In this document: piece by piece, positions 1,122-24,672 of the stretch | Layout: each line of letters begins with the position of its first letter | Position numbering within the stretch: position 1 is the first letter of the stretch | Assembly (NCBI RefSeq): GCF_011947225.1 | Contig: NZ_JAATVW010000007.1 | Span: 1 to 64,000 of the forward strand | Reading direction: 5' to 3' | Source of the DNA: Planosporangium flavigriseum | GTDB taxonomy: Bacteria; Actinomycetota; Actinomycetes; Mycobacteriales; Micromonosporaceae | Length of the DNA stretch: 64,000 nucleotides | The notes under the pieces: generated by a model | What the model was told of the DNA's origin: nothing | What the model saw: only the letters and a program-made list of their open reading frames with translations | Databases searched by the model: none | Position numbers and translations under genes: made by a program

Positions 1122-1150
1122 CAGCCCCGACCACAGCAAGGAGTTCCAGC

Positions 1151-2272: not shown

Positions 2273-2320
2273 CACCAGTTACGCGTGCCATGACCCACCC
2301 AGCGAAAGGGGAGCGTGCCA

Positions 2321-3032: not shown

Positions 3033-4475
3033 CTAGAGGTCGAGCCCGGTCAGGACCAGGACCCGCTCGTACGTGTAGTCCTCCATCGCGTACCGCACGC
3101 CCTCCCGGCCGACGCCGGACTCCTTGACGCCCCCGTACGGCATCTGGTCAGCGCGGAAGCTGGGCACGTCACCGATGACCACGCCGCCCACCTCCAGCTC
3201 CCGGTGGGCGCGGAACGCGACCTGGAGGTCGTGGGTGAAGACGCCGGCCTGCAGCCCGTACCGGGAGGCGTTCACCTTCGCGAACGCCTCGTCGATCCCG
3301 TCGACCGCCTCGATCACCAGAACCGGACCGAAGACCTCCTCGCAGGAGACCTTGGCGTCCGCGGGCACGTCCACGAGGACCGTCGGCGCGACGGTGGCGC
3401 CTTCCCGCGTACCGCCGGTCAGGACCTTGGCGCCGGCGGCCACAGCCTCGTCGATCCACTCCGCGACCCGGCGCGCGGCGGCCTCGTCGATCAGCGGGCC
3501 GACGTCGGTGTTCTCGTCCCACGGGTCACCGGTGCGCTGCGCGGCGACGGCGGCCGCGATCCGCTCGGCCAGCCGGTCGTAGCCGGACCGGTCGGCGAAG
3601 ACGCGCTGCACCGAGATGCAGGACTGCCCGGCCTGGTAGTTGGCGAAGGTGGCGATCCGGTTCGCCGCGAAGTCCAGGTCGGCCTCGCTGGACCAGTCGG
3701 GGCAGACCACCGCGGCGGCGTTGCCGCCGAGTTCCAGCGTGACGTGCTTGTGCGGCACCGCCCGCTGGATTCCCCAGCCCACCGGTCCGGAGCCGGTGAA
3801 CGAGACCACCGGCAGGCGCGGGTCGGCCACCAGCGCGGCGGTCTCCTCGTTGAGCAGGGGGAGTACCGACCACATCCCCGCCGGCAGGTCGCACTCGGCG
3901 AGCAGCTCCCCGAGCAGCAGCGTCGACAGCGGCGTCTTCGGCGCCGGCTTGATGATGACCGGGGCGCCGACCGCGATCGCCGGGGCGACCTTGTGGGCGA
4001 CGAGGTTGAGCGGGAAGTTGAACGGCGCGATCGCCAGCACCGGCCCGCGCGGGAACCGGCGGGTGATCGCCATCCGGCCGCTCGCGCCTGCGTCGGTGTC
4101 CAGCCGCTGGAGCTCACCCGACCAGCGCCGCGCCTCCTCGGCCGCCCAGCGGAAGGTGGAGACGGCCCGGCCGACCTCGCCGCGCGCCCACTTGAGCGGC
4201 TTGCCGTTTTCCGCGGTGATGAGCCGGGCCACCTCCTCGGTCCGCTCGGCGAGGCGGTTCGACACGTGGGCCAGGGCTTCGGCGCGGGAGTGCGCGGGCA
4301 GCGCCGCGGCCTGCGCCGCTACGGCCTGTGCCGACGCGACCGCCTCCTCGACCTGTGCGGCCGTCGGCACCGAGACCGACGCCACCGGTCGGCCGTCGTA
4401 CGGGTGGCGGACCTCGAAGGTCTGCTCACCCGTGGCGGGCCGCCCCGCCACCCAGAACATGCGTGCGTCGCTCAT
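3033..4475 (-). CDS. NAD(P)-dependent aldehyde dehydrogenase
   Basis: A 480-residue ALDH-superfamily enzyme converting an aldehyde to the acid. The catalytic cysteine is about residue 286 (AGQSCISVQ). The general-base glutamate is in VTLELGGNAA, the substrate-binding FNFPLN is present, and the C-terminal EEVFGPVL motif is intact. I take ATG 4475, although GTG 4496 is also in frame. It lies downstream of the module A permease on the same strand but behind a strong terminator. Together with the ADH operon it suggests an alcohol-aldehyde-acid route. Specificity is not inferable beyond the family. Confidence 0.88.
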   Translation of the reverse strand: MSDARMFWVAGRPATGEQTFEVRHPYDGRPVASVSVPTAAQVEEAVASAQAVAAQAAALPAHSRAEALAHVSNRLAERTEEVARLITAENGKPLKWARGEVGRAVSTFRWAAEEARRWSGELQRLDTDAGASGRMAITRRFPRGPVLAIAPFNFPLNLVAHKVAPAIAVGAPVIIKPAPKTPLSTLLLGELLAECDLPAGMWSVLPLLNEETAALVADPRLPVVSFTGSGPVGWGIQRAVPHKHVTLELGGNAAAVVCPDWSSEADLDFAANRIATFANYQAGQSCISVQRVFADRSGYDRLAERIAAAVAAQRTGDPWDENTDVGPLIDEAAARRVAEWIDEAVAAGAKVLTGGTREGATVAPTVLVDVPADAKVSCEEVFGPVLVIEAVDGIDEAFAKVNASRYGLQAGVFTHDLQVAFRAHRELEVGGVVIGDVPSFRADQMPYGGVKESGVGREGVRYAMEDYTYERVLVLTGLDL

Positions 4476-4507
4476 CGCCTCGCCACTACTCCTCACGTTG
4501 GTACACC

Positions 4508-4552
4508 TAAAAAGGCTGACCGGGCCGGTGCGCGCACACCGGCCCGGTCAGC
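4508..4552 (-). terminator. Intrinsic terminator after the module A permease
   Basis: A perfect 16-bp stem (4515-4530 with 4537-4552, starting GCTGACCGGGCCGGTG on either strand) closes a 6-nt loop. Reading leftward it is followed by CTTTTTAGG. It ends the ABC operon, only about 33 nt before the aldehyde dehydrogenase start. Confidence 0.88.
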
Positions 4553-4570
4553 AGCCTCGAACGGATTGGG

Positions 4571-5620
4571 TCAGCGGGTGGTCCGTCGCCGCAGCCGGTC
4601 GATGACGACCGCGCTGACGAGCAGCACGCCGAGGACGACCTGCTGGGTGTAGCTGGACACCCGGATCAGGTTCATGCCGTTGGAGAGCACCACCAGGAAC
4701 AGCGCGCCGATCGCCACCATGCTCAGCCGGCCCTCGCCGCCGAAGAACGACGTGCCGCCGAGCACCGCCGCCGCGATCGAGAGGATCACGTACTGGCCAC
4801 CGAGGTTCGGCTCGCCGGAGGAGACCCGGGCGGTGAGCAGGATGCCGGCGAGCGACGTCAGCGTGCTGCAGAGCACGAACGCCAGGACCTTGCTGCGGAA
4901 GACCGGCACACCGACCAGCCGGGCCGCGTTCTCGCCGCCGCCGACCGCGTAGAAGTAGCGGCCGGCGGTGGTCCAGTTCAGCAGCAGGTACAGCAGGCCG
5001 AACACGACCAGGGCGATCACGAGGGACAGCGGCACGGTGCCGATGCTGGAGTTGCCCAGGGCCGTGGTGAACGTCTTCGGCAGCCCGGTGATGGGGCTAC
5101 CGCTGGACAGGATCAGCGCGAGGCCGAAGGCGACGGCGCCGCTGCCGATGGTGACGATGAAGGACGGCACGCGGAACCGCGCCACGATCACTCCGTTGAT
5201 GAGACCGATCGCGAGGCCGACCGCGAGGCCGGCGAGCACGCCGAAGAGCACCGGCTTGGCCCCGTCGCCGCCGGTCTTCACCATCACGGTGCTTGAAACG
5301 ACACTGGTCAGGGCGATCGTCGAGCCGACCGACATGTCGATCTCGGCGATGACGAGCACCAGCATCTGCGCCATCGTGATGATGAGCAGGAACGACAGTT
5401 GCCGGCCGATGTTCGTGCCGTTGAGCGGGGTCAGGAACCGCGGCTCGATCGACGCGAAGATGACGACGCCGGCGATGAGCAGCACGGGGAGCAGCCCGAC
5501 TCGGAGCAGCGCGCTGACGAGTCGCGACGGACCCGAGGCGGCTGCGTCGGTCTGCTTGCCGAGGACCGGCCCGTCTTCCGGCTTGGACGACCGCTCGTCC
5601 AGATCAAGCGGACTGGTCAC
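4571..5620 (-). CDS. Sugar-type ABC transporter permease (RbsC family), module A
   Basis: A 349-residue BPD_transp_2 inner-membrane permease with about 8-10 hydrophobic segments. It contains the family pattern MAQMLVLVIAEIDMSVGSTI and the conserved GGENAARLVGVPV and VLGGTSFFGGEG segments. The start is GTG 5620, preceded by AGGGAG at 8 nt and overlapping the ATPase gene by 17 nt, which fits translational coupling. With the ATPase and the lipoprotein it forms a CUT2-type importer, a family that usually takes ribose-like sugars, polyols or autoinducer-type molecules. The adjacent monooxygenase and amidohydrolase argue for a non-sugar or modified substrate here; that is inference. Confidence 0.88.
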   Translation of the reverse strand: MTSPLDLDERSSKPEDGPVLGKQTDAAASGPSRLVSALLRVGLLPVLLIAGVVIFASIEPRFLTPLNGTNIGRQLSFLLIITMAQMLVLVIAEIDMSVGSTIALTSVVSSTVMVKTGGDGAKPVLFGVLAGLAVGLAIGLINGVIVARFRVPSFIVTIGSGAVAFGLALILSSGSPITGLPKTFTTALGNSSIGTVPLSLVIALVVFGLLYLLLNWTTAGRYFYAVGGGENAARLVGVPVFRSKVLAFVLCSTLTSLAGILLTARVSSGEPNLGGQYVILSIAAAVLGGTSFFGGEGRLSMVAIGALFLVVLSNGMNLIRVSSYTQQVVLGVLLVSAVVIDRLRRRTTR

Positions 5621-7151
5621 GGTGCACACTCCCTGAAGTAACAGAAGCGTCGCGCGAACCGAAGAACGCGCGGACGACATTTTCCTCGTTCAGTTCGTCG
5701 CCGCGCAGGTCGGCGACGACCCGCCCTTCACGAACCGCGTAGATCCGGTGTGACATGCCGAGGATCTCCTCGGTGTCCGACGAGATGAGCACCACGGCGG
5801 CGCCCTGCTCGCACAGCTTGTTCATGTATGCGTAGACATCCGTCTTGGCGCCGATGTCGATGCCGACGGTCGGCTCGTCGAAGACGTGTACGGGGAAACT
5901 CTTGGCGAAGGACCGGGCGAGCAGCGCCTTCTGCTGGTTACCGCCGGAGAAGCCGAGGATCGACCGCCCCGGGTCGGCGGGCTTGACCGCCAGCGCCTTG
6001 ATGACCTCGCTGGTCAGCGCCGTGCCGGCACGCCGGTTGACGATGCCGAACCGGGATGTGGTGCCGGCGGCGATCGACGGCAGCGTGATGTTCTCGCGCA
6101 GCGTCGCGGTGGTGACGAGCCCTTCGGCGTGCCGGTCGGCAGGGTAGTAGATCATTCCCTGGGCCATGGCCCGCTTCGGGCTGGGCTTGCTCAGTACCTT
6201 GCCGTCGATCTCCACGGTGCCGCCGTCGACCGGTTCCAGGCCGAAGCAGGCGCGGCCGATCTCGGACTTGCCCGAGCCGACCAGGCCGGCCAGCCCGACG
6301 ATCTCGCCGGCCGCCACCTCGAACGACACGTCCTTAAGGAGGGGCCCGCTCAGCCCGGAGACGCGCAGTCGCACCTTGCCGGGGCGGGCGTCGATTCGCG
6401 GGTAGAGCTTCTCCAGCGTGCGGCCGGACATCATCTCGACGAGCTTGTCGTCGGTGACGCCGGCGGCGTCGATCGTGCCGATCTTCTGGCCGTCCCGCAG
6501 CACCGTGACCCGGTCCGCCAGCTCCTTGATCTCAGCGAGCCGGTGGGAGATGTAGATGATGCCGATCCCGCGTTCGCGGAGGTTGGTGATGATCTCGAAG
6601 AGCCGGCGCGTCTCGGCAAGGCTGAGCGACGCCGTGGGCTCGTCCAGGATCAGGATGTCGGACTTGCGGTGCAGGACGCGGGCGATCTCCACGAGCTGCT
6701 TCTGGGCCCGGGACAGGCCAGCGACCTTCGTACGCGGGTCGAGGTCGACGCCGATGCGGGCGAGGGCCTCCTTCGCCCCGGCGAGCATCCGGTTCTTGTC
6801 GAGCAGTCCCGCGCGGCGCTGCTCGTGCGCGAGGTAGATGTTCTCGGCGATCGATAGGGCACCGACCAGGCTCATCTCCTGGAAGACCGTGCCGACCCCG
6901 TGGGCGGCCGCGCTGGTCGGGGTCAGCGCCCCCAGTTCGCGGCCGTTGATGACGATGGTGCCCTCGTCCTGCTGGACTGATCCGGAGATCGCCTTGATCA
7001 GCGTCGACTTTCCGGCGCCGTTCTCACCGAGAAGGGCGTGGATCTCGCCTCGGCGCAGGTCGAAGGAGACCCCGTCGAGTGCCTTGACACCCAGGTACCG
7101 CTTGGTGATCCGTTCGGCGCGGAGAACCACGCCCTCCTCGTGATGGTTCAT
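5604..7151 (-). CDS. Sugar-type ABC transporter ATP-binding protein (RbsA/MglA family), module A
   Basis: A 515-residue duplicated ATPase. The N-terminal half has Walker A GENGAGKST, signature LSRAQKQ and Walker B ILILDEPTASL. The C-terminal half has the degenerate Walker A GLVGSGKSE, signature FSGGNQQKALLARS and VFDEPTVGID. This two-domain architecture is diagnostic of CUT2 importers. ATG 7151 is preceded by GAGAAGGA with short spacing, and a TTG lies just upstream at 7154. It sits 17 nt after the binding-protein gene and overlaps the permease gene, so the three are one operon. Confidence 0.92.
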   Translation of the reverse strand: MNHHEEGVVLRAERITKRYLGVKALDGVSFDLRRGEIHALLGENGAGKSTLIKAISGSVQQDEGTIVINGRELGALTPTSAAAHGVGTVFQEMSLVGALSIAENIYLAHEQRRAGLLDKNRMLAGAKEALARIGVDLDPRTKVAGLSRAQKQLVEIARVLHRKSDILILDEPTASLSLAETRRLFEIITNLRERGIGIIYISHRLAEIKELADRVTVLRDGQKIGTIDAAGVTDDKLVEMMSGRTLEKLYPRIDARPGKVRLRVSGLSGPLLKDVSFEVAAGEIVGLAGLVGSGKSEIGRACFGLEPVDGGTVEIDGKVLSKPSPKRAMAQGMIYYPADRHAEGLVTTATLRENITLPSIAAGTTSRFGIVNRRAGTALTSEVIKALAVKPADPGRSILGFSGGNQQKALLARSFAKSFPVHVFDEPTVGIDIGAKTDVYAYMNKLCEQGAAVVLISSDTEEILGMSHRIYAVREGRVVADLRGDELNEENVVRAFFGSRDASVTSGSVHRDQSA

Positions 7152-7168
7152 CAATCCTTCTCAGGTGC

Positions 7169-8395
7169 TCACTTGCCGTTGACGCGGAAGACCGGCTTGA
7201 AGTCGGCCGGGGCGAACGTCGTCTCCGGGATGAAGGAGTCGAGGTTCGCGTCCGCGCCGGCGCCCGGGCCGCAGACCAGGATAGGCGCGGGGAACGCACG
7301 ACCCTTCTTCTCGTCCAGCGGGATCTTCTCCAGCAGGCGGACGGCCATGTCGACGGCCATGCGGGCCTGGATGACCGGCTGGTCGGAGACGCCGCAGGTG
7401 ACCTTGCCGCTCTTGATCTGGTCGAAGGTCGACGGGATCAGGTAGTCGGCGAAGATCTTGGCCTTGCCGCCACCAACGTTGCCGGCCACGGCCGCGTCGG
7501 CCGTCACGGCGGTGCCCGCGATCACCGAGATGCTCGGGTCGCCCTGGAGGGTGTCCTCCAGCAGCTTGAGCTGCACCTCCTTGGAGGTGTCGCCGTACTT
7601 GGTGACGGCGATGCTCGCCGGGCTGCCACTGATCGCGTCCTTGAAACCGGCCGTGGCGTCCTCGGCCCAGCCAGCCCCGGGCGGGCCGGGGAACCAGGCG
7701 ACCTTCTCGGCCTTGTTCTGCTTCTTCAGGTAATCGCCGACCGCGCCGCCCATCTCCCGCCAGTTCAGCACCGCGCGGCCGCTGACCTTCGGGTTGGAGA
7801 TGCCGTTGAGGCCGTCGATGACGACGATGCCCTGGTCGACGAGCTGCTGCACCTTGGCGTCGAGACCGTTGAAGCTGATCGCGCCGATCACGATCGCGTT
7901 GGCGCCGGACGACACGCAGTCGTCGATCTGGTTGAGCTGCTTGGCCAGCTCGGTGTAGCCGCCGGCCTCGTAGACGTCGAGGTCCACGCCGAGCCGGCGG
8001 GCCTCCTCCACCGCGCCGAAGTCCGCCGCCACCCAGTACGGGTCGGACAGGTGCGGAACCGCGAAGCAGACCTTCCACTTTTTGGAGACGAGGTCCTTCG
8101 GGATCGCGTTGTACACGCCCTCGGTCCGCGAGCCGTTGCAGCCCTCGGCCTTGGTCGCCTTGTCGTTGCAGTCGACGAAGAGCGTCGGGTACCACCAGGC
8201 GTCGCTCTTGAGCGACTCCCGGATCTCGCTGGCGGAAGCCTTGAAGCTGCCCTTGTCCGAACCTGGAATCGGCTTGGAGGGGTCGTACTTGCTCGACCCT
8301 CCGCCGGTGTCCTGCCCACTGCTGCACGCGGTGAGCAGAAGCGCGGTAGCTGTGGCTAACGCCGCCACTACCGCCTTCGCCTTACGCTTCGGCAT
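7169..8395 (-). CDS. Substrate-binding lipoprotein of the module A ABC importer
   Basis: A 408-residue secreted lipoprotein with a basic N terminus, a hydrophobic stretch and the lipobox LLLTAC with Cys24 as the lipid-anchored residue. The rest fits the periplasmic-binding-protein type 1 fold of the TorT/RbsB group (KWKVCFAVPHLSDPYW, GANAIVIGAISF, VAGNV). ATG 8395 is chosen because GGAG lies 6 nt upstream; ATG 8407 is the in-frame alternative. It would capture the imported compound outside the membrane. Its relative in module B (15249) has the same role but looks only moderately similar, so the two importers may differ in ligand. Confidence 0.87.
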   Translation of the reverse strand: MPKRKAKAVVAALATATALLLTACSSGQDTGGGSSKYDPSKPIPGSDKGSFKASASEIRESLKSDAWWYPTLFVDCNDKATKAEGCNGSRTEGVYNAIPKDLVSKKWKVCFAVPHLSDPYWVAADFGAVEEARRLGVDLDVYEAGGYTELAKQLNQIDDCVSSGANAIVIGAISFNGLDAKVQQLVDQGIVVIDGLNGISNPKVSGRAVLNWREMGGAVGDYLKKQNKAEKVAWFPGPPGAGWAEDATAGFKDAISGSPASIAVTKYGDTSKEVQLKLLEDTLQGDPSISVIAGTAVTADAAVAGNVGGGKAKIFADYLIPSTFDQIKSGKVTCGVSDQPVIQARMAVDMAVRLLEKIPLDEKKGRAFPAPILVCGPGAGADANLDSFIPETTFAPADFKPVFRVNGK

Positions 8396-8481
8396 TCTCG
8401 TCTCCATCGTGCGGTCCCGCGATTGCCGCAGGAGTACTCATCGGTCGGTACTGGAAGTTCTGAACAGAAAGTGGTGCCAGA

Positions 8482-9642: not shown

Positions 9643-9713
9643 TGAAACGCCCTTCCACTTACCCAGACATGTTGAGAACCGGCGCGACAGCGCCGCGGTT
9701 GGCTTCTGCCGAT

Positions 9714-9745
9714 AACGAGAAGTGAGACCTCGCTCACTTCACGTT
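9714..9745. promoter_or_regulatory. 32-bp inverted repeat, candidate operator at the module A start site
   Basis: The left arm AACGAGAAGTGAG (9714-9726) and right arm CTCACTTCACGTT (9733-9745) are reverse complements at 12 of 13 positions around a 6-nt centre. It lies immediately downstream of the leftward -10 box, so a bound protein would block initiation or elongation. Alternatively it folds as a hairpin in the 5' leader. The binding protein is unknown; the Lrp-type regulators at 11817 and 12847 are nearby candidates. Confidence 0.7.
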
Positions 9746-9753
9746 GGAGCTAG

Positions 9754-9783
9754 ACCGTAAACAGTCAGTTAGGGCCGTGTCAA
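9754..9783 (-). promoter_or_regulatory. Consensus sigma-70-type promoter for the leftward module A operon
   Basis: On the minus strand, TTGACA (9783-9778) and TACGGT (9759-9754) are separated by 18 nt. The predicted start falls at about 9747, just before the inverted repeat, about 100 nt upstream of the monooxygenase ATG. The perfect -35 is striking in such GC-rich DNA. Confidence 0.65.
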
Positions 9784-10078
9784 GGACTGAATCCGTCAAA
9801 ATCTCGGTCGCGTCGGATGGATATCGGATGATCGAGCGTCTACGGCGTCCGATCTCCGGACAGCGCCCGCCGGTTGGGCGGAATTCGGCAAGAATCGGCG
9901 TCCGGATGGCATGTTTCGCCGTTGACGTGACCAAATTGGGCGGTTACCGTCATTCAATCCGCGCTGGTGGTGGCTGAGAGGTCGCGCCATCCGGTGCACA
10001 GACATCGGGCCGGTCGGCTGTGGCGCATCCACTTCGCTGACGGCTCATTTCGCAACAACCTCCGGGAGGGCAGCCGGT

Positions 10079-11752
10079 ATGGAGCGCGCCGCGGAACTCG
10101 TGTTGGTCTCGAACCGGGTCATCTGGATGACCGAGGGGGAGCCGGTGTCGCCCGGCTTCGTCGCCGTGCGCGACGGCAGCATCGTCGCCACCGGGCCGCG
10201 CGAGGAGGTCGACCGCTACGTCGGGCCGGACACCGTCCTGCGCGACGTCGGCGATTCGCCCATCATGCCGGGCTTCGTCGACGTCCACGCCCACATGGAG
10301 GTCGCCGCGCGGACCACGTACCAGACCGTCGACTGCCGCGCGCCGGGCTGCAAGGACATCCCGGCGCTGCTCGACAGGCTGCGCGCCCACCTCGACGACG
10401 CCGTGGACGGCTGGCTCGTCGGCCAGGCCAACCTCTTCTTCGACCAGAAGCTCGCCGAGAAGCGGCTGCCCACGCGGGCCGAGCTGGACTCGGTCAGCAC
10501 GGAGATCGCGATTGTGATCCGGGCTGGCGGGCACGTCAGCGTGCTCAACAGCCGCGCCCTGGAGCGGGCCGGGATCGACCGGAACTACCGGGCGGCCGAC
10601 TACAGCATCACCGGCATGCCCACCGTCGAGCGCGACGCCGACGGGGAGCCGACCGGCGTGGTCAAGGAGATGGACAACCTCCTCCCGCTGCCGAAGCTCG
10701 ACGGTGATGGCCTGCGCAACGCGATCCGCGAGGGCGTCCGCGACCTCTTCACGGCGAACGGCGTCACCACGATCGGCGAGATCTCCGAGACCGTGGACGG
10801 CCTGCGCCAGATGGACGCGCTGCACGCGGCCGGCGAGCTCGGCTCCCGCCTGCGCATCTACCTCTGGGCACCGGGTACGGTCAGCCTGGAAGAGGCCTGT
10901 GCCTACCGCGAGTGGGCGGACTTCACGTCCTCCGAGGACCTCGTCAAGATCCACGGTGTCAAGATGTTCTCGGACGGCGGGTACTCCGCCGCGAGCGCCG
11001 CGGTGAAGAAGCCGTACGTCCACATGGACCACGGCCACTGCGGCGAGGTCGCGCTGTCGGCCGACCAGATCGCCGAGGCGCTGACCAAGACCGCGGCGGC
11101 GGGCCTGCAGCTCGCGATCCACGCGAATGGCGACCAGGCGCAGGAGGAGGTCTGCGAGGCGATCATCGCCGCGGGTGGGCCGAAGCCCGGCGCCCCGGCG
11201 CCGCGCGTCGAACACGCCGGCAATTTCCTGCCCGACCCGTCGCAGACGGCGCTGTGGCGCAAGGCCGGGATCATCCCGGTGCCGCAGCCGGTCTTCGTCT
11301 ACACCTTCGGCGACTTCTTCCCGACGTACCTGGGGGACTACGGCCGGCTCGGCCGCTTCCCGTTCCGGCGTCTCCTCGACGAGGGCTGGGACATCACGGG
11401 CAGCTCCGACGTCTGGATCGGCTCGGAGTCCGGCGCCACCAACCCGTTCTTCAGCGTGTGGAACTGCCTCGCGCGCCGGTCGTTCTTCGGCGAGACCCTC
11501 GACGCCGACCAGACGATCACGCTCGCCGAGGCCCTGCGGATGCACACCATCAACGCCGCGCGCACGTTGGGCGAGGAGGACCTGTACGGCTCGCTCGAGG
11601 TCGGCAAGAAGGCCGACATCATCGTCCTGGACCGCGACCCGTTCGAATGCGCCACCGACGAGCTGCTCGATGTGCGGGTCGACGCGGTGTTCCTCGGCGG
11701 CCGCGTCGTGCACGAGCGGTCGGACGAGGTGACACGCGATTCCGGCGCCTAG
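10079..11752 (+). CDS. YtcJ-like amidohydrolase (amidohydrolase_3), module A
   Basis: A 557-residue metal-dependent hydrolase. The metal-binding HxH pair is in GFVDVHAHMEV (about residue 65). Later metal/catalytic segments are KIHGVKMFSDGGYS (about 290), LAIHANGDQAQ (about 345) and the C-terminal SSDVWIGSESG. The family hydrolyses C-N bonds in amides and cyclic or formamide-type substrates; the exact reaction is unknown. The start has GGGAGG 8 nt upstream. It is transcribed divergently from the importer/monooxygenase operon and probably acts in the same pathway. Its paralogue is at 19065. Confidence 0.85.
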   Translation: MERAAELVLVSNRVIWMTEGEPVSPGFVAVRDGSIVATGPREEVDRYVGPDTVLRDVGDSPIMPGFVDVHAHMEVAARTTYQTVDCRAPGCKDIPALLDRLRAHLDDAVDGWLVGQANLFFDQKLAEKRLPTRAELDSVSTEIAIVIRAGGHVSVLNSRALERAGIDRNYRAADYSITGMPTVERDADGEPTGVVKEMDNLLPLPKLDGDGLRNAIREGVRDLFTANGVTTIGEISETVDGLRQMDALHAAGELGSRLRIYLWAPGTVSLEEACAYREWADFTSSEDLVKIHGVKMFSDGGYSAASAAVKKPYVHMDHGHCGEVALSADQIAEALTKTAAAGLQLAIHANGDQAQEEVCEAIIAAGGPKPGAPAPRVEHAGNFLPDPSQTALWRKAGIIPVPQPVFVYTFGDFFPTYLGDYGRLGRFPFRRLLDEGWDITGSSDVWIGSESGATNPFFSVWNCLARRSFFGETLDADQTITLAEALRMHTINAARTLGEEDLYGSLEVGKKADIIVLDRDPFECATDELLDVRVDAVFLGGRVVHERSDEVTRDSGA

Positions 11753-11816
11753 ACGGGGCGTCGCGCGCGACTACCCAGCCGCTATGTTGGCTGCCATGCA
11801 CGGATCGGAGTATCTG

Positions 11817-12818: not shown

Positions 12819-12846
12819 CCGCAGCCGGTCCCCGGCATCCACCGGT

Positions 12847-13776: not shown

Positions 13777-14055
13777 CGGGTGCCGCCTTCTACCGCGCTG
13801 CGCGAGCAGGTGAATCGTCACGGCATAAAGCTAGCGCACCATCATCCGAATTTGCGAATTCACGCCCTAACCGACGGCATGAACTACGAGAACTGGTCCT
13901 TGTGGTGGCCGTCACTGACGACTATGGTTCCGCGAAACGCATCTGAGAACGCATCTCGGCCGACGCAAGTGGTCAGCGGTGCGCCGATGAACGGTGCTCG
14001 CTGACGGGTGCGTCGCGCTCACAGGGCGCATGGAGGAGAAGGAACGGAGAGCTTC
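13777..14055. other. Divergent regulatory region, regulator 2 / module B monooxygenase
   Basis: 279 nt with no supported gene. It has a 14-bp inverted repeat GAATTTGCGAATTC at 13848-13861, AT-rich relative to its surroundings and about 75 nt from the regulator start. That is a plausible Lrp-type autoregulatory site, but weak. A purine-rich GGAGGAGAAGGAACGGAGA tract at 14032-14050 provides the ribosome site for 14056. Confidence 0.5.
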
Positions 14056-15201
14056 ATGACGAAGGCAAGGCACGCCGAGATCGCGGGCGCGGGGATGGTC
14101 GGCCTGGCTGCCGCCGCAGCCCTGGCCCGGCGGGGGTGGTCGGTACGCGTCCATGAGCGAAACGCCGAGCTGCGTGAAATCGGCGCCGGCATAGCCGTCT
14201 GGAGCAACGGCGTTTACGCGCTGCGCGAGGTCGGCGCGTACGAGGAGGCCGTTGCCGGCACCGACCGCATCGACCACTGGCAACTTCGCGACGAGAAGAA
14301 CCGGCTCGTCCAAGAAGAATGGTTGATGTCCGGGGTGAGCGAGTCGTACGCCATCCTGCGCCCTCGGCTCCACCAGGCGCTGGCCAACGCCGCTCGCCGG
14401 TACGGCGCGGAGATCGTGACCGGTTCACCGGTGGCCGGCGCGACCCCGGATGGCAAGCTGCTCCTGGAGAGTGGGGAGGCCCTGCCGGCCGACCTGGTGG
14501 TCGGTGCCGATGGCGTGGGCTCCCGGGTGCGCGACTCGCTGGGTCTCGCCCGCCGCGTCCGTGACCTGCACGATGGCTGCGGGCGCCACCTCATCCCGCG
14601 GCTGCCGGACGACCCGAACGACATGATGGTGGAGCGCTGGAACGGGGGCCGGCGGATCGGCATCGTGCCCTGCACCAAGGACCAGGTCTACATCTACCTC
14701 TGCTGCCCGGAGGCTGACGTCGCCGGCCGCAACCAGAGTCACGACCTGTCGACCTGGATCGAGACTTTCCCGGAGTTCGCCCGCTACATCAAGCGAATCC
14801 CGCCGGGCGGCGTATGGCGCTCCTTCGCCGACGCCGTCGTCACCAACTGGTCGCGCGGCAAGGTCGCGCTGGTCGGCGACGCGGCCAGCGCGATGTCTCC
14901 GAACCTCGGGCAGGCCGCGTGCGTCGGCATGGTGAACGCCGTCGCGCTCGCTCAGGCACTCGACGCCTACCTGGACGTCGAGACGGCACTGGCCAAGTGG
15001 GAGCAGGCCGAACGGCCGGTCACCGACAGCACCCAGAAGTACTCCCGTTTCTACGGATGGATCGGCACCCACTGGCCGCGTCCGGCGCTCGGCGTCCGGT
15101 CGGCCCTGATCTGGACGCTCGCCCACTCGAAGCACATGCAGCAGCGGATCAACGTCGCGGCGCGACACGTCCCAGCGGTCGGCACGCCCATCGAGGCGTA
15201 G
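14056..15201 (+). CDS. FAD-dependent monooxygenase (salicylate hydroxylase-like), module B
   Basis: A 381-residue class A flavin monooxygenase: IAGAGMVGLAAAAALARRGW at the N terminus, DG motif VVGADGVGSRVRD (about residue 155) and GD motif ALVGDAASAMSPNLGQA (about 275). It shares long identical runs with the module A enzyme (WSVRVHER, REIGAGI, WPRP, TQKYSR), so the pair arose by duplication. ATG 14056 is preferred, with GGAG 6 nt upstream. It leads a rightward module with the binding protein, ATPase, permease and amidohydrolase. Confidence 0.87.
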   Translation: MTKARHAEIAGAGMVGLAAAAALARRGWSVRVHERNAELREIGAGIAVWSNGVYALREVGAYEEAVAGTDRIDHWQLRDEKNRLVQEEWLMSGVSESYAILRPRLHQALANAARRYGAEIVTGSPVAGATPDGKLLLESGEALPADLVVGADGVGSRVRDSLGLARRVRDLHDGCGRHLIPRLPDDPNDMMVERWNGGRRIGIVPCTKDQVYIYLCCPEADVAGRNQSHDLSTWIETFPEFARYIKRIPPGGVWRSFADAVVTNWSRGKVALVGDAASAMSPNLGQAACVGMVNAVALAQALDAYLDVETALAKWEQAERPVTDSTQKYSRFYGWIGTHWPRPALGVRSALIWTLAHSKHMQQRINVAARHVPAVGTPIEA

Positions 15202-15248
15202 CCGAGCACGCTCCGACCTGGAAGACAACACTGTTTGGAGGCACAGGA

Positions 15249-16403
15249 GTGAAGTTACGCAAGACGATTGGGATAACGGTCCTCCCGTTCACCGCCGCAC
15301 TGGCTCTGGCCGGCTGCGCGGCCGAGAAGAAAAGCGCGGGGGCCGATGAGGGTGCCGCGCCCGCGGCGTCCAGCAAGGAGCGGTACGCGACCCTCCTGGA
15401 CGACAAGGTGAAGGCGCTGACCAAGGCGCTGCCCGCCACCGAGGTAAAGCTGGACAGCGGGATCACGGTGCCGTTCAAGGAGGGCGAGAAGCTCCGCGTC
15501 GCCTTCGTCGGGTACGGCAAGGGCTACGACTATTCCAAGCCGGAGTACGCGGCGGCGAAGGAGCAGGCCGCGGCGCTCGGCATGGAGCTGGAGGAGTTCG
15601 ACCCTAGCGGCGATGCCCAGAAGCAGGTCGCCCAGATGCAGGACATCATGGCGTCCGGCAAGTACAACGCCGTCGTCGCGTTCCCGCTCTCACCGGACCT
15701 GACCTGCGACCTGATGACCCGTCAGATGCCGAGGAAGGGGATCATCACGGCCGCCATCGGCAGCCCCGCGTGTACCACCAGCGACACGCCGGGCGTGGTC
15801 ACCACGGTCGCGGACACCGGTTACACCGACTACGTCTACACCGAGTGGGCGAAGGAGATCGCCGCCACTCAGAAGACTGGCGGCAAGGCGATCCTGCTGG
15901 TCGGGCCGCAGCTCGACTACAGCGCGAAGCTCGCCGCGAAGGCCGCCGAGGCCGTCTTCAAGGAGAAGGGCATCGAGCTTCTCGACGTCCTGTACACGGA
16001 CTTCACCCAGCCGGATTCGCTGCAGAAGACGCAGAACGCCCTGCAGCGGCACGCCGACGCCACGCTCATCGCCAGCGCGTTCCCGGAGGGCACCCAGGCT
16101 TCGATCTCCGCGGTTCGCCTCGCGGGTCGCCAGGGCAAGGTCAGCGTCTTCGACTTCGGCGCCAACGAGCAGGCGCTGAAAGCGATCGAAGAAGGCACTG
16201 TCGCGGGAAGCACGCCGTTCTACTCGTACACGAAGGTCAAGACCGCGCTGCAGGCCCTGCACCTGGCACGCCACGGGCAGAAGGTCGACGCCTACTACGG
16301 GTACTCCGGGCACGCGCCCGAGTCGATGAGGCCGGCTGACGCCAAGATCATGTTCGTGAACAAGGACAACGTCAAGGCGTTCAAGGAACAGGTCGCCGAG
16401 TAG
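15249..16403 (+). CDS. Substrate-binding lipoprotein of the module B ABC importer
   Basis: A 384-residue lipoprotein starting at GTG 15249 with GGAGG 7 nt upstream. The signal peptide ends in the lipobox LALAGC with Cys23 as the anchor. The mature part fits the RbsB/Peripla_BP_4 fold (KLRVAFVGYGKGYDY, MQDIMASGKYNAVVAFPLSP, KAILLVGPQLDYS). It would deliver ligand to the ATPase/permease encoded downstream. A stem-loop follows in the gap before the ATPase gene, a common way to keep binding-protein mRNA in excess. Confidence 0.87.
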   Translation: MKLRKTIGITVLPFTAALALAGCAAEKKSAGADEGAAPAASSKERYATLLDDKVKALTKALPATEVKLDSGITVPFKEGEKLRVAFVGYGKGYDYSKPEYAAAKEQAAALGMELEEFDPSGDAQKQVAQMQDIMASGKYNAVVAFPLSPDLTCDLMTRQMPRKGIITAAIGSPACTTSDTPGVVTTVADTGYTDYVYTEWAKEIAATQKTGGKAILLVGPQLDYSAKLAAKAAEAVFKEKGIELLDVLYTDFTQPDSLQKTQNALQRHADATLIASAFPEGTQASISAVRLAGRQGKVSVFDFGANEQALKAIEEGTVAGSTPFYSYTKVKTALQALHLARHGQKVDAYYGYSGHAPESMRPADAKIMFVNKDNVKAFKEQVAE

Positions 16404-16422
16404 CCGAGCGAAGTTATCCCTG

Positions 16423-16459
16423 GTGGGATGCGGATTGCCGGGCGCTGTCCGCATCCCAC
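16423..16459 (+). promoter_or_regulatory. Intergenic stem-loop between binding-protein and ATPase genes
   Basis: GTGGGATGCGGA (16423-16434) pairs perfectly with 16448-16459 across a 13-nt loop. There is no T-run. Within an operon such a hairpin usually stabilises the upstream mRNA or causes partial termination. Confidence 0.6.
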
Positions 16460-16480
16460 GAGCGACCTCAGCCGACGTGG

Positions 16481-17989
16481 GTGGTGAGAGTGACAATCGT
16501 TTTCGATGGAATTTCGAAGTCCTTCGGCGGCACGCGGGCCCTGGACGGTATCGATCTGCGCGTGGAGGCAGGAACGATTCATGCGCTCGTGGGCGAGAAC
16601 GGCGCGGGAAAGTCGACCTGCCTCGGGGTCCTCGCTGGCCGGGTCACGCCCGATTCCGGCACGGTCACCGTCGCGGAACGCCCACATCCGTTCGGCAGCC
16701 CCCGTCAGGCCGCGCGGGCGGGAGTCGCCGCGATCTACCAGGAACTGTCGGTCGTTCCCACGCTGACGGCGCTGGAGAACGTGTTCCTCGGACAGGAGCG
16801 ACGCCGCGCGTCAGTCTTCGAAGACCGTCGCCGCATGCGTGAGCAGTACCGTGCGCTGTGCGCACGCCTGGACGTCGCCATCGCCCCCGCGCAGCCGGTC
16901 GCCGAACTGTCCATTGGCGATCAGCAGATGATCGAGATCATGCGGGCGCTGGTCGGTACCCCGACCGCCATCCTGCTCGACGAACCGACCGCGGCGCTCG
17001 GTCCGCGGGAGCGGTCGGTCCTCTACCGGGTGGTACGGGAACTCAAGGCGGACGGCGTCACCATCATCTTCGTCAGCCACAATCTCGACGAGGTACTCGA
17101 CCTCGCCGATCACGCCACGGTCTTCCGCGACGGCCGGATCAGTGAGTCGCGCCCGACCGCCGAGTGGACCAAGGCTGACCTGACCCGAGCGATGGTCGGT
17201 CACTCGCTGTCTCCGGCAATCCGTACGGAGCAGCGGAATACGCGGCCTCGGGAGCTGCTCGCCGTCGAGAACCTGACCGTCGGCAGCAAGATCCAGAACC
17301 TGTCCCTGAGCCTGGCCGAGGGCGAGGTGGTGGGTATTGCCGGCCTGGTGGGCTCCGGAAGGACGACCCTCCTCCGCGCGCTGGCTGGCGACACGCCACC
17401 CGCCAGTGGGTCGATGAGGCTCCACGGCGATCCGCGCCGATGGCCGAGATCGGTGCGCGAGGCGCGTCGGGCGGGTATCGCGCTGCTGACCGAGGACCGC
17501 AAGCGGTCCGGGTTGTTCGCCGAGGCGACGTCGTCGGACAACCTGTTGATCAGCAATCTCGGCGCGGTGTCCCGGCTCGGAGTGGTCTCCGGCAGTCGCA
17601 GCGTCGCCGCCAGCCGGTCCGCCGCCACCGCGGTGCGCCTGTCCGAGCAGCGCCTGAGCTCGCCGGTCGGCGTCCTGTCCGGTGGCAACCAGCAGAAGGT
17701 ACTGCTCGCGCGGGCGGTCCACTTCCAACCGAAGGTGTTTCTCGCCGACGAACCCAACCGCGGAGTCGACGTGGGAGCCAAGGCGGAGATCGCCGCGAGC
17801 CTGCGCGGGATGGCTGCGCAAGGGTCGGCGATCCTCGTCGTGTCCTCGGAGTTCGAGGACCTGTACGAGCTGTGCGACCGGGTCCTGGTGATGTGGCGAG
17901 GCACGCTCGTCGCCGAGCTGATCGGCCCCGAAATCACCATCGACGCCATGGTTTCAAAGGTCTTCGGCCCCGGAGGTGCCGTCCGATGA
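16481..17989 (+). CDS. Sugar-type ABC transporter ATP-binding protein (RbsA family), module B
   Basis: About 502 residues with two ABC domains. The first has Walker A GENGAGKST, signature LSIGDQQM and Walker B ILLDEPTAALG. The second has GLVGSGRTTL, LSGGNQQKVLLARA and FLADEPNRGVDVGAK. GTG 16481 or GTG 16490 could be the start; neither has a strong ribosome site. The stop overlaps the permease ATG in ATGA. The predicted role is energising the module B importer. Confidence 0.9.
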   Translation: MVRVTIVFDGISKSFGGTRALDGIDLRVEAGTIHALVGENGAGKSTCLGVLAGRVTPDSGTVTVAERPHPFGSPRQAARAGVAAIYQELSVVPTLTALENVFLGQERRRASVFEDRRRMREQYRALCARLDVAIAPAQPVAELSIGDQQMIEIMRALVGTPTAILLDEPTAALGPRERSVLYRVVRELKADGVTIIFVSHNLDEVLDLADHATVFRDGRISESRPTAEWTKADLTRAMVGHSLSPAIRTEQRNTRPRELLAVENLTVGSKIQNLSLSLAEGEVVGIAGLVGSGRTTLLRALAGDTPPASGSMRLHGDPRRWPRSVREARRAGIALLTEDRKRSGLFAEATSSDNLLISNLGAVSRLGVVSGSRSVAASRSAATAVRLSEQRLSSPVGVLSGGNQQKVLLARAVHFQPKVFLADEPNRGVDVGAKAEIAASLRGMAAQGSAILVVSSEFEDLYELCDRVLVMWRGTLVAELIGPEITIDAMVSKVFGPGGAVR

Positions 17990-19011
17990 AGATGAACTCC
18001 AGCGTGTCCGTCTCACCTCGTGACTCCATCGCGGTCGACGACGAGACCCCGACGCCCAGCACGAAGCGTGTCCTGAACGCGGGGTCGGTCGGTCGGGTCC
18101 TGACGAAGTACGCGCCGCTTCTGGTGCTGGCAGCACTGCTCGTCATCGGCACGATCGTCCACCCCGGGCTGTGGGCCGTCGACAACATCCGCAACATCCT
18201 CACTCAGAACGCGGCCGTCGCGCTCGTGTCCTTCGGCATGACCCTGGTCATCATCGCCGGCGTGTTCGATCTGTCGGTGGGGGCGATCTTCGCGGCCGGA
18301 GCGGTCGCGTTCGCCTCCCTGTCGAACGTGTTCGACCTGACGTCCTCGGCGCTCCTCGCGATCGGCATCGGCCTCCTCGCGGGTGCCTTCAACGGCGTCA
18401 TCGTGACCAAATTCCGGGTCAACTCCTTCATCGGCACGATCGCGACCGCCGCCATCATCTCCGGTCTGGTCTACGTCGCCTGTGACTCGGCTCCGGTCCA
18501 ATCGGACGCCGTCGGCTTCGACACGCTCGGACTGGGCGGCATCGCCGGCGTGCCCTGGTCCATCCTGATCATGCTGGCGGTCTTCGTGGTGCTGGCGTCG
18601 GTCCTGAACCGGACGATCCTGGGACGTTACGTCTTCGCCAGCGGCGGGAACGCCGAGGCCGCCCGGCTCACCGGTGTACCGGTGGCGGCGGTGCAGATCT
18701 TCTGCCTTGTGGTGGTGGGTGGCCTGTCGGCACTGGCCGGCGCGCTCACCGCGTCGCAACTCGGCGTCGGGCAGCCCACGCTGGGGGCGAACATCGCTCT
18801 CGATTCGTTCGCCATCGTCGTCATCGGCGGGACGTCGGTCTACGGCGGTCGGGGCGCGCTGTGGCGCACCGCCACCGGCGTGCTGATCCTCGCCGTGCTG
18901 ACCAACATCTTCAACGCGATGGCGTGGGACACGACCCGCCAGTCCGTGGCCAAGGGCGCCGTACTCCTGCTCGCGGTGGCGCTCGACGCCGCCCGCAACG
19001 CCCGGCGGTAG
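17986..19011 (+). CDS. Sugar-type ABC transporter permease (RbsC family), module B
   Basis: A 341-residue BPD_transp_2 permease with about 8-10 hydrophobic helices. Its hallmark segments parallel the module A permease: FGMTLVIIAGVFDLSVGAI, GNAEAARLTGVPV and VIGGTSVYGGRGALW. The ATG overlaps the ATPase stop (ATGA) and has GGAGG 9 nt upstream. A start at 19065 for the amidohydrolase follows after 53 nt, so all five module B genes probably share one transcript. Confidence 0.9.
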   Translation: MKMNSSVSVSPRDSIAVDDETPTPSTKRVLNAGSVGRVLTKYAPLLVLAALLVIGTIVHPGLWAVDNIRNILTQNAAVALVSFGMTLVIIAGVFDLSVGAIFAAGAVAFASLSNVFDLTSSALLAIGIGLLAGAFNGVIVTKFRVNSFIGTIATAAIISGLVYVACDSAPVQSDAVGFDTLGLGGIAGVPWSILIMLAVFVVLASVLNRTILGRYVFASGGNAEAARLTGVPVAAVQIFCLVVVGGLSALAGALTASQLGVGQPTLGANIALDSFAIVVIGGTSVYGGRGALWRTATGVLILAVLTNIFNAMAWDTTRQSVAKGAVLLLAVALDAARNARR

Positions 19012-19064
19012 CCGTTACCGAGGATCCGCACCACAGCAGCGAACACGAGAAGGGAATTCGGCTG

Positions 19065-20726
19065 ATGGACACTGTGATCAAGGGTCAGGTCCGCACGCTC
19101 GCCCGACGGGGGGCGCAGCACGCCGGCGCGGTACGCGTACGGGACGGCGTCATTGTCGAAGTGGCAGACGGCGACGCGGGCGGCGGGCCGCACGAGGTGA
19201 TCGACTTCGGCGACCGGACCACGATGCCGGGATTCATCGACCCGCACGCGCATCTCGAGGTGAGCGCACGCGCCCTGGGAACCATGGTGGACGTCCGGGT
19301 CCCGCACTGCGCGTCCATCGCTGACGTGCTCGATGCCCTGCGGGACGGCATCGCACAGGACAAGCATGACGGCGGCTGGCTGCGCGCGCAGGCGAACCTG
19401 TTCTTCAACCAGAAGTTGGCCGACAAACGGTATCCGACCCGGTCCGAACTCGACTCCGTCAGCAAGACCGTTCCCATCGCGGTGCACGCTGGCGGTCACA
19501 CCACGCTGCTCAACACGGTGGCGATGGAGCTGGCCGATCTCGGCCGGTTCAGCGACCGGAGCAAGGGCGCGATGGGTGGGGCCGTGGTCGAGATGGGCGC
19601 CGACGGCACACCCACCGGCGTGGTCAGCGAGGTCGACAGCCTCCTTCCGATCAAGGATCCCGAATACCTCGACCTGGCCGACGTTCTCGCAGCCGGCGCC
19701 CAGCAACTCTTCACCCGGTTCGGCGTGACGGCCGTCGGTGACATCTCCGGCTCCGCCGAGGGGGTCCGGGAGCTGGTGGGCCTGGTGGCGTCGGGCCGGA
19801 TCCCACAGCGTCTCGAGGTGTTCGTCTGCGCGCCCGGGACCGTCGACTTCGAAGCCGCCTTGCACCCCGAGGACCTCATCCCGGCAGACGCGCAGCGGAT
19901 CTCCGCGCGCGGCATCAAGGTCTTCTCCGACGGCGGCTACTCGGCGAAGAACGCGGCGGTGCACACCGCGTACCGCCGGCCCCATGCGATACGCCCCGGC
20001 TCCAGGGGCAAGGTCAACCTCGACCGGCGACAGTTGTCGAGCATGATCCGACGCGCCGGCGCGGTCGGCCTTCAGCTGGCGGTGCACGCCAACGGTGAGC
20101 GTGCCCAGGAAGTGGTCTGCGCCGCGGCGACCGAGGCACGTCGGCTGGTACCCGATCTGCCGATCACCCGGGTGGAGCATGCCGGCAACCTGCTGACCCG
20201 GCCCGGAGCGCTGCGCTCGTGGCGCACCGCAGGCATTTTGCCGGTACCGCAGCCGGTCTTCCTCTACAACTTCGGTGACTTCTTCCCCACGTACCTCGGT
20301 CCGGTGGCGAGCCGGGGACGGTTCCCCTTCCGCTTGTTGCACGACGAGGGATTCATCGTCTCCGGAAGCTCCGATGTGTACGTGGGTGCCGAAGACCGCC
20401 AGACCAACCCGTTCTTCGGGATCTGGTGCTGCCTGCGCCGCCAGACGTTTCTCGGCGAGATCGTCGAGCCGGAGCAGGCGGTCACCCTGGAGGAGGCGCT
20501 ACGGATGCACACCATCAACGCTGCCGAGGCGCTCGGACTGGCGGAGCGCTACGGCTCGGTCGAGGTGGGCAAGGCGGCCGACCTTATCGTTCTCGATCGC
20601 GACCCGACCACCTGTGGCGTGGACGAGTTGCTGGACGTGAAGGTGGACCACGTGATGGTCGACGGGCGGCTGGTCTACTCGCGGGATGGAGCGGTGCCGC
20701 CCACCCGCCGTACGGTCTCGTCGTGA
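19065..20726 (+). CDS. YtcJ-like amidohydrolase (amidohydrolase_3), module B
   Basis: A 553-residue paralogue of the enzyme at 10079. The HxH metal site is in GFIDPHAHLEVSAR (about residue 65). Matching segments are ARGIKVFSDGGYSAKNAAV (about 285), LQLAVHANGERAQ (about 340) and GSSDVYVGAEDRQTNPFFG. ATG 19065 has GAAGGG about 10 nt upstream. The predicted reaction is hydrolysis of an amide-type C-N bond; the substrate is unknown. It closes the module B operon. Confidence 0.85.
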   Translation: MDTVIKGQVRTLARRGAQHAGAVRVRDGVIVEVADGDAGGGPHEVIDFGDRTTMPGFIDPHAHLEVSARALGTMVDVRVPHCASIADVLDALRDGIAQDKHDGGWLRAQANLFFNQKLADKRYPTRSELDSVSKTVPIAVHAGGHTTLLNTVAMELADLGRFSDRSKGAMGGAVVEMGADGTPTGVVSEVDSLLPIKDPEYLDLADVLAAGAQQLFTRFGVTAVGDISGSAEGVRELVGLVASGRIPQRLEVFVCAPGTVDFEAALHPEDLIPADAQRISARGIKVFSDGGYSAKNAAVHTAYRRPHAIRPGSRGKVNLDRRQLSSMIRRAGAVGLQLAVHANGERAQEVVCAAATEARRLVPDLPITRVEHAGNLLTRPGALRSWRTAGILPVPQPVFLYNFGDFFPTYLGPVASRGRFPFRLLHDEGFIVSGSSDVYVGAEDRQTNPFFGIWCCLRRQTFLGEIVEPEQAVTLEEALRMHTINAAEALGLAERYGSVEVGKAADLIVLDRDPTTCGVDELLDVKVDHVMVDGRLVYSRDGAVPPTRRTVSS

Positions 20727-22489: not shown

Positions 22490-22511
22490 GTGCGCTTTTT
22501 CGTTCGAGATG

Positions 22512-24637: not shown

Positions 24638-24672
24638 CCGGGCCCGTCCGAGGCTCGTACGACACCGATCAG

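What the first reader, a model, noticed from the sequence alone, without database searches (positions are those of the whole stretch)
3033..20726. Duplicated importer / flavin monooxygenase / amidohydrolase catabolic system
Two paralogous sets, each with a CUT2 ABC importer, an FAD monooxygenase and a YtcJ-like amidohydrolase, flank a pair of paralogous double-Lrp regulators. Gene order differs (module A split divergently, module B collinear), suggesting duplication plus rearrangement and divergence. I know of no described pathway with exactly this trio; the pairing of a sugar-type importer with oxidation and C-N hydrolysis suggests uptake of an N-acyl or amide-bearing (perhaps aromatic) compound.
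Basis: partly seen in the sequence, partly recalled or inferred. Interest (0 to 1): 0.7.

Follow-up and report, generated by a model that had tools for sequence, protein, structure and literature searches.

The report
Paired ring-opening nitrogen-heterocycle catabolic modules
Two side-by-side gene blocks each appear to import a nitrogen-containing ring compound, break the ring open with oxygen and clip the resulting amide, a two-enzyme recipe that this bacterium seems to carry in several versions with different importers.

Summary
The gene content is as described: two blocks, each with a CUT2-type ABC importer, a FAD monooxygenase (FMO) and an Amidohydro_3 hydrolase (AH), meeting tail to tail at two double-Lrp regulators. 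Only the enzymes are close paralogues (FMO 54.5%, AH 49%). The importers are not a copied pair, and FMO-A and FMO-B lie in separate clades with members from other genera, so recent local duplication is not supported.

Both FMOs match MHPCO best in the PDB (226 bits for FMO-A, next family 84). MHPCO opens a 3-hydroxypyridine ring to an N-acyl enamide in vitamin B6 breakdown. FMO and AH co-vary (r 0.96, 28 pairs). AHs lacking such an FMO mostly sit near a luciferase-like monooxygenase. Orthologous enzyme pairs have an NCS1 nucleobase-type permease instead of the CUT2 importer in Streptomyces and a Mycobacterium MAG.

Best reading: import an azaarene, open the ring oxidatively, hydrolyse the enamide, oxidise the aldehyde. 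The host carries seven FMO/AH pairs with at least three importer classes. Substrates are unknown and no activity was tested. New variant of a known kind.

The parts
3033..4496 (-). Aldehyde dehydrogenase, last gene of block A
   Evidence: Pfam Aldedh 4e-137; best NCBIfam models are small-aldehyde and semialdehyde dehydrogenases, all below their cut-offs; beside the permease in L019-L021 at 84-91% identity
4571..5620 (-). CUT2-type permease A
   Evidence: BPD_transp_2; GTG start inferred by reading
5604..7151 (-). CUT2-type double ATPase A
   Evidence: ABC_tran, two stretches; clade with importers of other FMO/AH modules
7169..8407 (-). Substrate-binding lipoprotein A, TorT-like
   Evidence: Peripla_BP_4; NF008185 285 bits, cut-off 200; TIGR02955 219 bits, cut-off 310; best PDB 4yhs 263 bits
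8482..9642 (-). FMO-A, MHPCO-like FAD monooxygenase
   Evidence: Best PDB MHPCO, 226 bits; R178, R201, Y213 equal MHPCO R181, R211, Y223
9643..10078 (.). Divergent control region of block A: TTGACA element shared with orthologues, and an inverted repeat at 9714-9745
   Evidence: function inferred
10079..11752 (+). AH-A, Amidohydro_3 hydrolase
   Evidence: Pfam 2e-70; metal-ligand candidates H70, H72, K295, H348, H379, D444 invariant in 22 of 22
11784..12818 (+). Double-Lrp regulator 1, partner of block A
   Evidence: AsnC domains in two stretches; next to the AH in 9 other A-type loci, L019-L021, L023-L027, L036
12847..13821 (-). Double-Lrp regulator 2, divergent from block B
   Evidence: AsnC domains in two stretches; assignment to block B by position only
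14056..15201 (+). FMO-B, MHPCO-like FAD monooxygenase
   Evidence: Best PDB MHPCO, 224 bits; ATG at 14056 inferred
15249..16403 (+). Substrate-binding lipoprotein B, not TorT-like
   Evidence: Peripla_BP_4; weak PDB matches only; GTG start inferred
16481..17989 (+). CUT2-type double ATPase B
   Evidence: ABC_tran; outside the ATPase-A clade
17986..19011 (+). CUT2-type permease B
   Evidence: BPD_transp_2
19065..20726 (+). AH-B, Amidohydro_3 hydrolase
   Evidence: Pfam 6e-64; metal-ligand candidates as in AH-A

Best explanation
Each block is a pathway for an N-heteroaromatic compound. The importer brings in a small azaarene, most likely a 3-hydroxypyridine-like compound, different for A and B. 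The FAD monooxygenase, like MHPCO, adds oxygen and opens the ring next to the nitrogen, giving an N-acyl or N-formyl enamide. The metal-dependent amidohydrolase hydrolyses that amide, leaving an enamine that falls apart to an aldehyde and ammonia; the aldehyde dehydrogenase (in block A) oxidises the aldehyde. A double-Lrp regulator senses substrate or product. Shown: gene families, MHPCO kinship, conserved residues, FMO/AH co-variation, conserved neighbourhoods. Inferred: every reaction, the substrate class and the regulation.
For: Best PDB match of both FMOs is MHPCO, 226 and 224 bits; the next family for FMO-A is 84. Foldseek with the FMO-A model (pLDDT 88) ranks MHPCO chains 1-8, E 3e-38 to 3e-36, next family 1e-26. 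R181, R211, Y223 of MHPCO are kept in 96, 95 and 96 of 96 relatives. Precedent: in vitamin B6 degradation the ring-opened enamide is hydrolysed to succinic semialdehyde, ammonia, acetate and CO2 (PMC3538738, passages). FMO and AH distances co-vary: r 0.96 over 28 pairs, 0 of 5000 permutations as high; 0.94 over 23 close pairs. Of 20 AH places tallied, 13 have an MHPCO-like FMO, 6 a luciferase-like monooxygenase within 6 kb, 1 neither found. Same enzymes with a nucleobase-type permease: three A-type loci (L023-L025, FMO and AH 76-78% identical) and three C-type loci (L028, L034, and L040 with its AH 8 kb off) carry NCS1 in place of the CUT2 importer. Three Rhodococcus plasmid clusters carry FMO, torT-annotated SBP, AH, ATPase, permease and a gene annotated succinate-semialdehyde dehydrogenase. 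AH metal-ligand candidates invariant in 22 of 22.
Against: No activity or substrate is known. MHPCO pocket residues Y82, Y270 and C294 are kept in only 8, 7 and 3 of 96 relatives and Y54 in 42; in FMO-A and FMO-B the four read FWFS and AWFS. MHPCO relatives include plain hydroxylases (KnmB1 45%, CaeB6; PMC9838390 passages), so kinship does not prove ring opening. R211 and Y223 may be shared with the urate hydroxylase HpxO (recalled, not aligned here), so they argue for N-heterocycles rather than for ring opening. Nine of 27 loci with a close FMO lack an AH within 5 kb: 2 meet contig ends (L031, L047), 2 have an AH 8-9 kb away (L029, L040), 5 show none (L022, L039, L041, L042, L044). Four of nine more distant FMOs of the order survey have no AH listed near by. 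One own-genome AH (C4) has no such oxygenase. CUT2 importers are mostly sugar importers. Block B has no ALDH of its own.
Confidence: 0.6

Rival explanations
1. The FMO only hydroxylates a hydroxypyridine and the amidohydrolase-fold enzyme opens the ring, as KpiC does as a dioxygenase in 4-hydroxypyridine catabolism.
For: kpi cluster of Arthrobacter IN13: FAD monooxygenase KpiA, amidohydrolase-superfamily ring opener KpiC, cytosine/purine-type permease KpiP (PMC7356986: passages, section 17).
Against: KpiA's nearest characterised relative there is a quinolone hydroxylase, not MHPCO; KpiC is PF01979 whereas these AHs score best with PF07969, though they also hit PF01979, and keep all six binuclear metal-ligand candidates; the AHs also sit near luciferase-like oxygenases.
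Confidence: 0.15
2. The FMO oxidises an imidazole, purine or pyrimidine and the AH opens the resulting lactam, like imidazolonepropionase.
For: 3rp6/3rp8, named HpxO urate oxidase in a passage of PMC6315137, is the second PDB family for FMO-A; imidazolonepropionases are among the AH fold matches; the Pfam family of the NCS1 permeases covers cytosine, purines, uracil and allantoin.
Against: MHPCO outscores HpxO 226 to 84 bits; imidazolonepropionase matches are far weaker than 3igh/3icj (3e-16 against 6e-34).
Confidence: 0.12
3. One reading: import of an N-acyl or amide-bearing aromatic, AH removes the acyl group, FMO hydroxylates the freed ring.
For: Amidohydro_3 members include deacylases and deformylases (recalled); NCBIfam relatives of the FMOs include aromatic hydroxylases.
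Against: MHPCO kinship; the same AH family near luciferase-like oxygenases; NCS1 replacement of the importer.
Confidence: 0.1

Closest known systems
Vitamin B6 degradation, MHPCO step and E-2AMS hydrolase (Mesorhizobium loti)
   Same: Same FMO family; predicted ring opening to an N-acyl enamide followed by amide hydrolysis and a semialdehyde
   Different: FMO-A and FMO-B are 39% and 40% identical to MHPCO with a changed pocket; the hydrolase there is an alpha/beta hydrolase (PDB 3kxp seen; fold recalled), here a metal amidohydrolase
kpi cluster, 4-hydroxypyridine catabolism, Arthrobacter sp. IN13 (PMC7356986, passages and section 17)
   Same: PF01494 monooxygenase, amidohydrolase-superfamily enzyme, NCS1-type permease (the permease only in relatives of the window blocks)
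   Different: KpiC is PF01979 and reported as the ring opener; extra KpiB and KpiD hydrolases; no CUT2 importer or double-Lrp mentioned in what I read
Pyridine degradation, Arthrobacter sp. 68b (Casaite 2020; only its reference seen, gene content recalled)
   Same: Recalled: two-component flavin monooxygenase opens pyridine, amidohydrolase removes formyl, semialdehyde dehydrogenase follows; gene make-up like L108, L126, L127
   Different: Oxygenase is luciferase-like (recalled), not MHPCO-like; homology of its amidohydrolase not tested
CUT2 sugar ABC importers
   Same: SBP, double ATPase, single permease families
   Different: Exchanged for NCS1, and in the distant pairs for polyamine-like or amino-acid-like ABC importers, beside the same enzyme families; SBP-A is TorT-like

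Membership tests
MHPCO (2-methyl-3-hydroxypyridine-5-carboxylate oxygenase) | Best sequence and fold match is MHPCO | tested here: met
   sequence, both FMOs; fold, FMO-A
MHPCO (2-methyl-3-hydroxypyridine-5-carboxylate oxygenase) | R181, R211, Y223 (roles recalled) | tested here: met
MHPCO (2-methyl-3-hydroxypyridine-5-carboxylate oxygenase) | Pocket residues Y54, Y82, Y270, C294 (roles recalled; 270 and 294 are mutated in PDB entries) | tested here: not met
   FWFS in FMO-A, AWFS in FMO-B. Also in a separate clade from MHPCO. Hence MHPCO-like, not MHPCO
MHPCO (2-methyl-3-hydroxypyridine-5-carboxylate oxygenase) | Oxidative ring opening | not testable with these tools
   needs enzyme assay
Amidohydro_3 metal-dependent hydrolase | PF07969 above cut-off and conserved metal-ligand candidates | tested here: met
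   closest fold 3igh/3icj
HpxO urate hydroxylase | NF033623 cut-off 500 bits | tested here: not met
   138.5 (FMO-A) and 132.1 bits (FMO-B)
TorT (TMAO reductase system periplasmic protein) | NCBIfam TorT equivalog cut-offs | tested here: inconclusive
   SBP-A passes NF008185 (285 of 200), fails TIGR02955 (219 of 310); sits with an ABC importer
CUT2 importer | Peripla_BP_4 SBP, two ABC_tran stretches, BPD_transp_2 permease | tested here: met
Recent local duplication of one module | A and B are each other's nearest relatives for all parts | tested here: not met
Vitamin B6 degradation pathway II (5-pyridoxate) | Acts on 5-pyridoxate | not testable with these tools
   needs substrate assay
kpi-type 4-hydroxypyridine cluster | KpiC-type PF01979 ring opener with KpiB and KpiD | tested here: inconclusive
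   AH scores best with PF07969 but also hits PF01979; no alpha/beta hydrolase or fumarylacetoacetate-hydrolase match among the block genes scanned

The most novel reading that the evidence does not exclude
A general azaarene ring-opening kit: one amidohydrolase family that hydrolyses ring-opened enamides, combined with either MHPCO-like or luciferase-like oxygenases and with interchangeable importers. This genome runs seven FMO/AH pairs in parallel for different natural azaarenes, and one of them may be the unassigned 5-pyridoxate branch of vitamin B6 breakdown (that no gene is assigned is recalled).
Probability: 0.3. Interest if true: 0.75.

Novelty: new variant of a known kind. Interest (0 to 1): 0.55.

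Why it matters
If right, a recurrent two-gene signature (MHPCO-like FMO plus Amidohydro_3) would mark N-heterocycle ring-opening pathways that are now annotated as generic FAD oxidoreductase, amidohydrolase and sugar ABC transporter. It would turn some CUT2 'sugar' importers into candidate azaarene importers and give an entry point to soil turnover of vitamin B6-like compounds, alkaloids and pyridine pollutants (related clusters sit on Rhodococcus and Arthrobacter plasmids).

Tried and rejected
Recent local tandem duplication: rejected. Genomic island bounded by tRNA-Leu at 22511: blastn-short finds no repeat of the tRNA region longer than 11 bases elsewhere in the window. ADH, Gfo/Idh and SDR genes at 117-3031 as part of the system: no such genes detected near the ALDH in L019-L021, so left out. 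L103, the own-genome MHPCO-orthologue locus, as a full vitamin B6 cluster: its alpha/beta hydrolase matches E-2AMS hydrolase only weakly (6.6e-9, 26th of 30), so not claimed. AHs of about 30% identity on Sinorhizobium, Shinella, Methylobacterium and Streptomyces plasmids: no FMO annotated in the four regions read; treated as another subfamily. Cupriavidus H8 has no annotation there and shows no FMO by tblastn. Operator search: the inverted repeat at 9714-9745 is partly kept in close relatives only; not pursued. PMC6515984, listed with four of the terms, holds them in unrelated table rows, and 'tort' there is a surname (passages). Loci dropped before counts: L111 and L112 (same contigs as L027 and L026). 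Of the 80 loci, 53 have an FMO under 50.5% identity and none of those has an AH within 5 kb. The 20-place AH tally: 13 places from the order survey (identity 44% or more, the window's two included), 1 from the phylum survey (40%), 6 from plasmids (37% or more; H6 was listed but not fetched, and the Rhodococcus records H4, H5, H7 are close to each other). Surveys score only a few candidates per genome, so they undercount: one search missed this genome's own FMO at C1:181673 that one search lists.
Full report
What is there. The window holds two complete blocks. Block A reads ALDH, permease, ATPase, SBP, FMO on the minus strand and AH, double-Lrp on the plus strand, split at a 436-base divergent region (9643-10078). 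Block B has a double-Lrp on minus and FMO, SBP, ATPase, permease, AH on plus. The two Lrp genes meet tail to tail, 28 bases apart (12819-12846). The pairs differ in kinship: FMO 54.5%, AH 49.0%, Lrp 36.4%, ATPase 35.2%, permease 34.8%, SBP no real match.

Not a recent local duplication. FMO-A belongs to a 100/100 clade of 10 rows with Planosporangium, Micromonospora, Streptomyces, Mycobacterium, Frankiales and Blastococcus sequences; FMO-B to a 95/90 clade with Cryobacterium and Solirubrobacterales sequences. How these clades join is unresolved there, so an ancient paralogy stays open. ATPase-A falls in a 98/99 clade of 19 rows, 16 of them from FMO/AH modules; ATPase-B pairs with L030 only (module content). 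In its own genome ATPase-B is closer to four other CUT2 ATPases than to ATPase-A. I infer that two older modules came to lie side by side.

Genome-wide. The genome (G000, 5.7 Mb, 85 contigs) has eight strong FMO hits and eight strong AH hits; seven of each are neighbours: the two window blocks and C85, C2, C1, C21, C3. Importers beside them are CUT2 (A, B, C85, C2), an ABC set with an SBP_bac_8 binding protein, polyamine-like by eye (C21 by Pfam, C3 by 61% identity), and one with SBP_bac_3, amino-acid-like (C1). The unpaired AH (C4) sits with a Peripla_BP_6 importer; the unpaired FMO (C1:181673) is 63% identical to MHPCO itself. The families are rare: FMO at E 1e-60 in 10 of 249 genomes of the order, AH at 1e-75 in 2 of 396 of the phylum, this one included. 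Those searches score only a few candidates per genome, so copy numbers there are lower bounds.

Linkage. In the order survey 9 of 9 listed FMOs at 54% or more have an AH within 5 kb; of 9 at 39-44%, 5 do and 4 have none listed near by (with AH places). In the 80 loci, which were found through the FMO, 18 of 27 with FMO over 50.5% have an AH within 5 kb and 0 of 53 below that. The nine misses are L022, L029, L031, L039, L040, L041, L042, L044, L047; L031 and L047 meet contig ends, L029 and L040 have an AH 8-9 kb away. FMO and AH distance matrices correlate at 0.96 over 28 pairs, highest of 5000 permutations 0.41, and at 0.94 over 23 close pairs; shared species history contributes to such a figure.

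What the FMO is. Both FMOs match MHPCO first in the PDB by sequence, and FMO-A by fold (AlphaFold model, pLDDT 88). R181, R211 and Y223 of MHPCO are kept in 96, 95 and 96 of 96 relatives; 28 of 335 columns are that conserved, so this alone is modest evidence. Residues at 54, 82, 270 and 294 differ from MHPCO; position 54 is F in A and A in B, and position 82 is W in both but P in the C85/C2 type, which suggests different substrates. That these positions line the substrate site is recalled. KnmB1 and CaeB6, pyridine hydroxylases, are also MHPCO relatives (PMC9838390, passages).

What the AH is. Amidohydro_3, fold closest to 3igh and 3icj of unknown function (pLDDT 91.7). Six metal-ligand candidates are invariant in 22 of 22; that they are ligands is inferred from the superfamily. 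In 20 places found through the AH, the neighbouring oxygenase is MHPCO-like in 13, luciferase-like in 6 and not found in 1: order survey 9, 3, 1; phylum survey 1 luciferase-like, G362; plasmids 4 and 2. Distances run up to 6 kb. In L107 and L126 the luciferase-like proteins are only 23-25% identical to that of L108; one of L107 is confirmed by Pfam and that of L126 by the record annotation. A flavin reductase gene lies in L107 and L108 (Pfam), L126 and L127 (annotation) and, by eye, L138; in L106 only a 34% tblastn match. These clusters also hold ALDH in L040, L107, L108, L126, L127 and L138, and in several cases double-Lrp, NCS1 and RibBA genes (RibBA from the record, recognised by eye in L106 and L108).

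Transport. A-type enzyme pairs use the TorT-like CUT2 importer in L019-L021, L026, L027, L036 and an NCS1 permease in L023, L024, L025; C-type pairs use CUT2 in most loci and NCS1 in L028, L034 and, with the AH 8 kb off, L040. Pfam and NCBIfam were run on the L024 protein (PF02133 2.8e-47; NCS1 and CytX models below their cut-offs); the other five are 64-97% identical to it. Orthologous enzymes served by a nucleobase-type permease point to a small N-heterocycle.

Mechanism. Import, oxidative ring opening by the FMO, enamide hydrolysis by the AH, aldehyde oxidation. Precedents: vitamin B6 pathway I (PMC3538738, passages), 4-hydroxypyridine kpi cluster (PMC7356986, passages and section 17), and, recalled only, pyridine in Arthrobacter 68b. 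A Sinorhizobium fredii plasmid carries AH, TorT-like CUT2 importer, FMO (63%) and double-Lrp in a row, so the cluster crosses phyla. Rhodococcus plasmid clusters of the C type carry a gene annotated as succinate-semialdehyde dehydrogenase. Against: no assay, hydroxylating relatives, AH-less loci, sugar-type importer class.

Novelty. Eight of the ten literature searches bear on this, and no paper that they listed describes this trio as far as titles, abstracts and the passages I opened show; one search listed 15 of 355 papers and 20 of 23. The other two looked for one strain and one plasmid. Only open-access papers are held, and two key papers could not be read. The chemistry is of a known kind; the partner enzyme, the exchangeable importers and oxygenases and the sevenfold set in one genome make it a new variant.

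Noticed in passing
L103:9670 (G000 C1:181673): An FMO 63% identical to MHPCO that keeps six of the seven checked MHPCO residues (not 54) and its two-residue insertion, next to an Amidohydro_2 protein; a likely vitamin B6-type ring opener in the same genome.
   Followed up: partly
L052:11062 (Brucella tritici record); same-sized ORF in L066 and L088: MHPCO-like FMO followed by an alpha/beta hydrolase that by eye resembles cofactor-free 3-hydroxy-4-quinolone dioxygenases (recalled), suggesting another ring-opening route.
   Followed up: no
L045, L048, L049, L071, L077 (Modestobacter, Marmoricola, Actinomycetospora, Pseudonocardia): MHPCO-like FMO (44-46%) beside an amino-acid-permease-like transporter (by eye; no NCBIfam match); in L071 also a large molybdenum-hydroxylase-like protein (by eye).
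   Followed up: no
L022:8484-11146 (Planosporangium thailandense): Lrp and FMO of the A type are kept but no AH is found between them or elsewhere in the locus.
   Followed up: no
L040:485-12600 (Mycobacterium palustre): A luciferase-type cluster with AH and an MHPCO-like FMO with NCS1 lie side by side, perhaps sharing one AH.
   Followed up: no
window 9714-9745: Inverted repeat (13-base arms, 92%) just downstream of a conserved TTGACA element before FMO-A; a candidate operator, partly kept in L019-L021.
   Followed up: partly
window 23480-28447: A further ABC importer set with a Peripla_BP_6 binding protein starts just beyond tRNA-Leu (22511-22585).
   Followed up: no
window 44001-46000: Strong AT skew (-0.318) and the highest GC (0.739) of the 2-kb steps of the window.
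   Followed up: no
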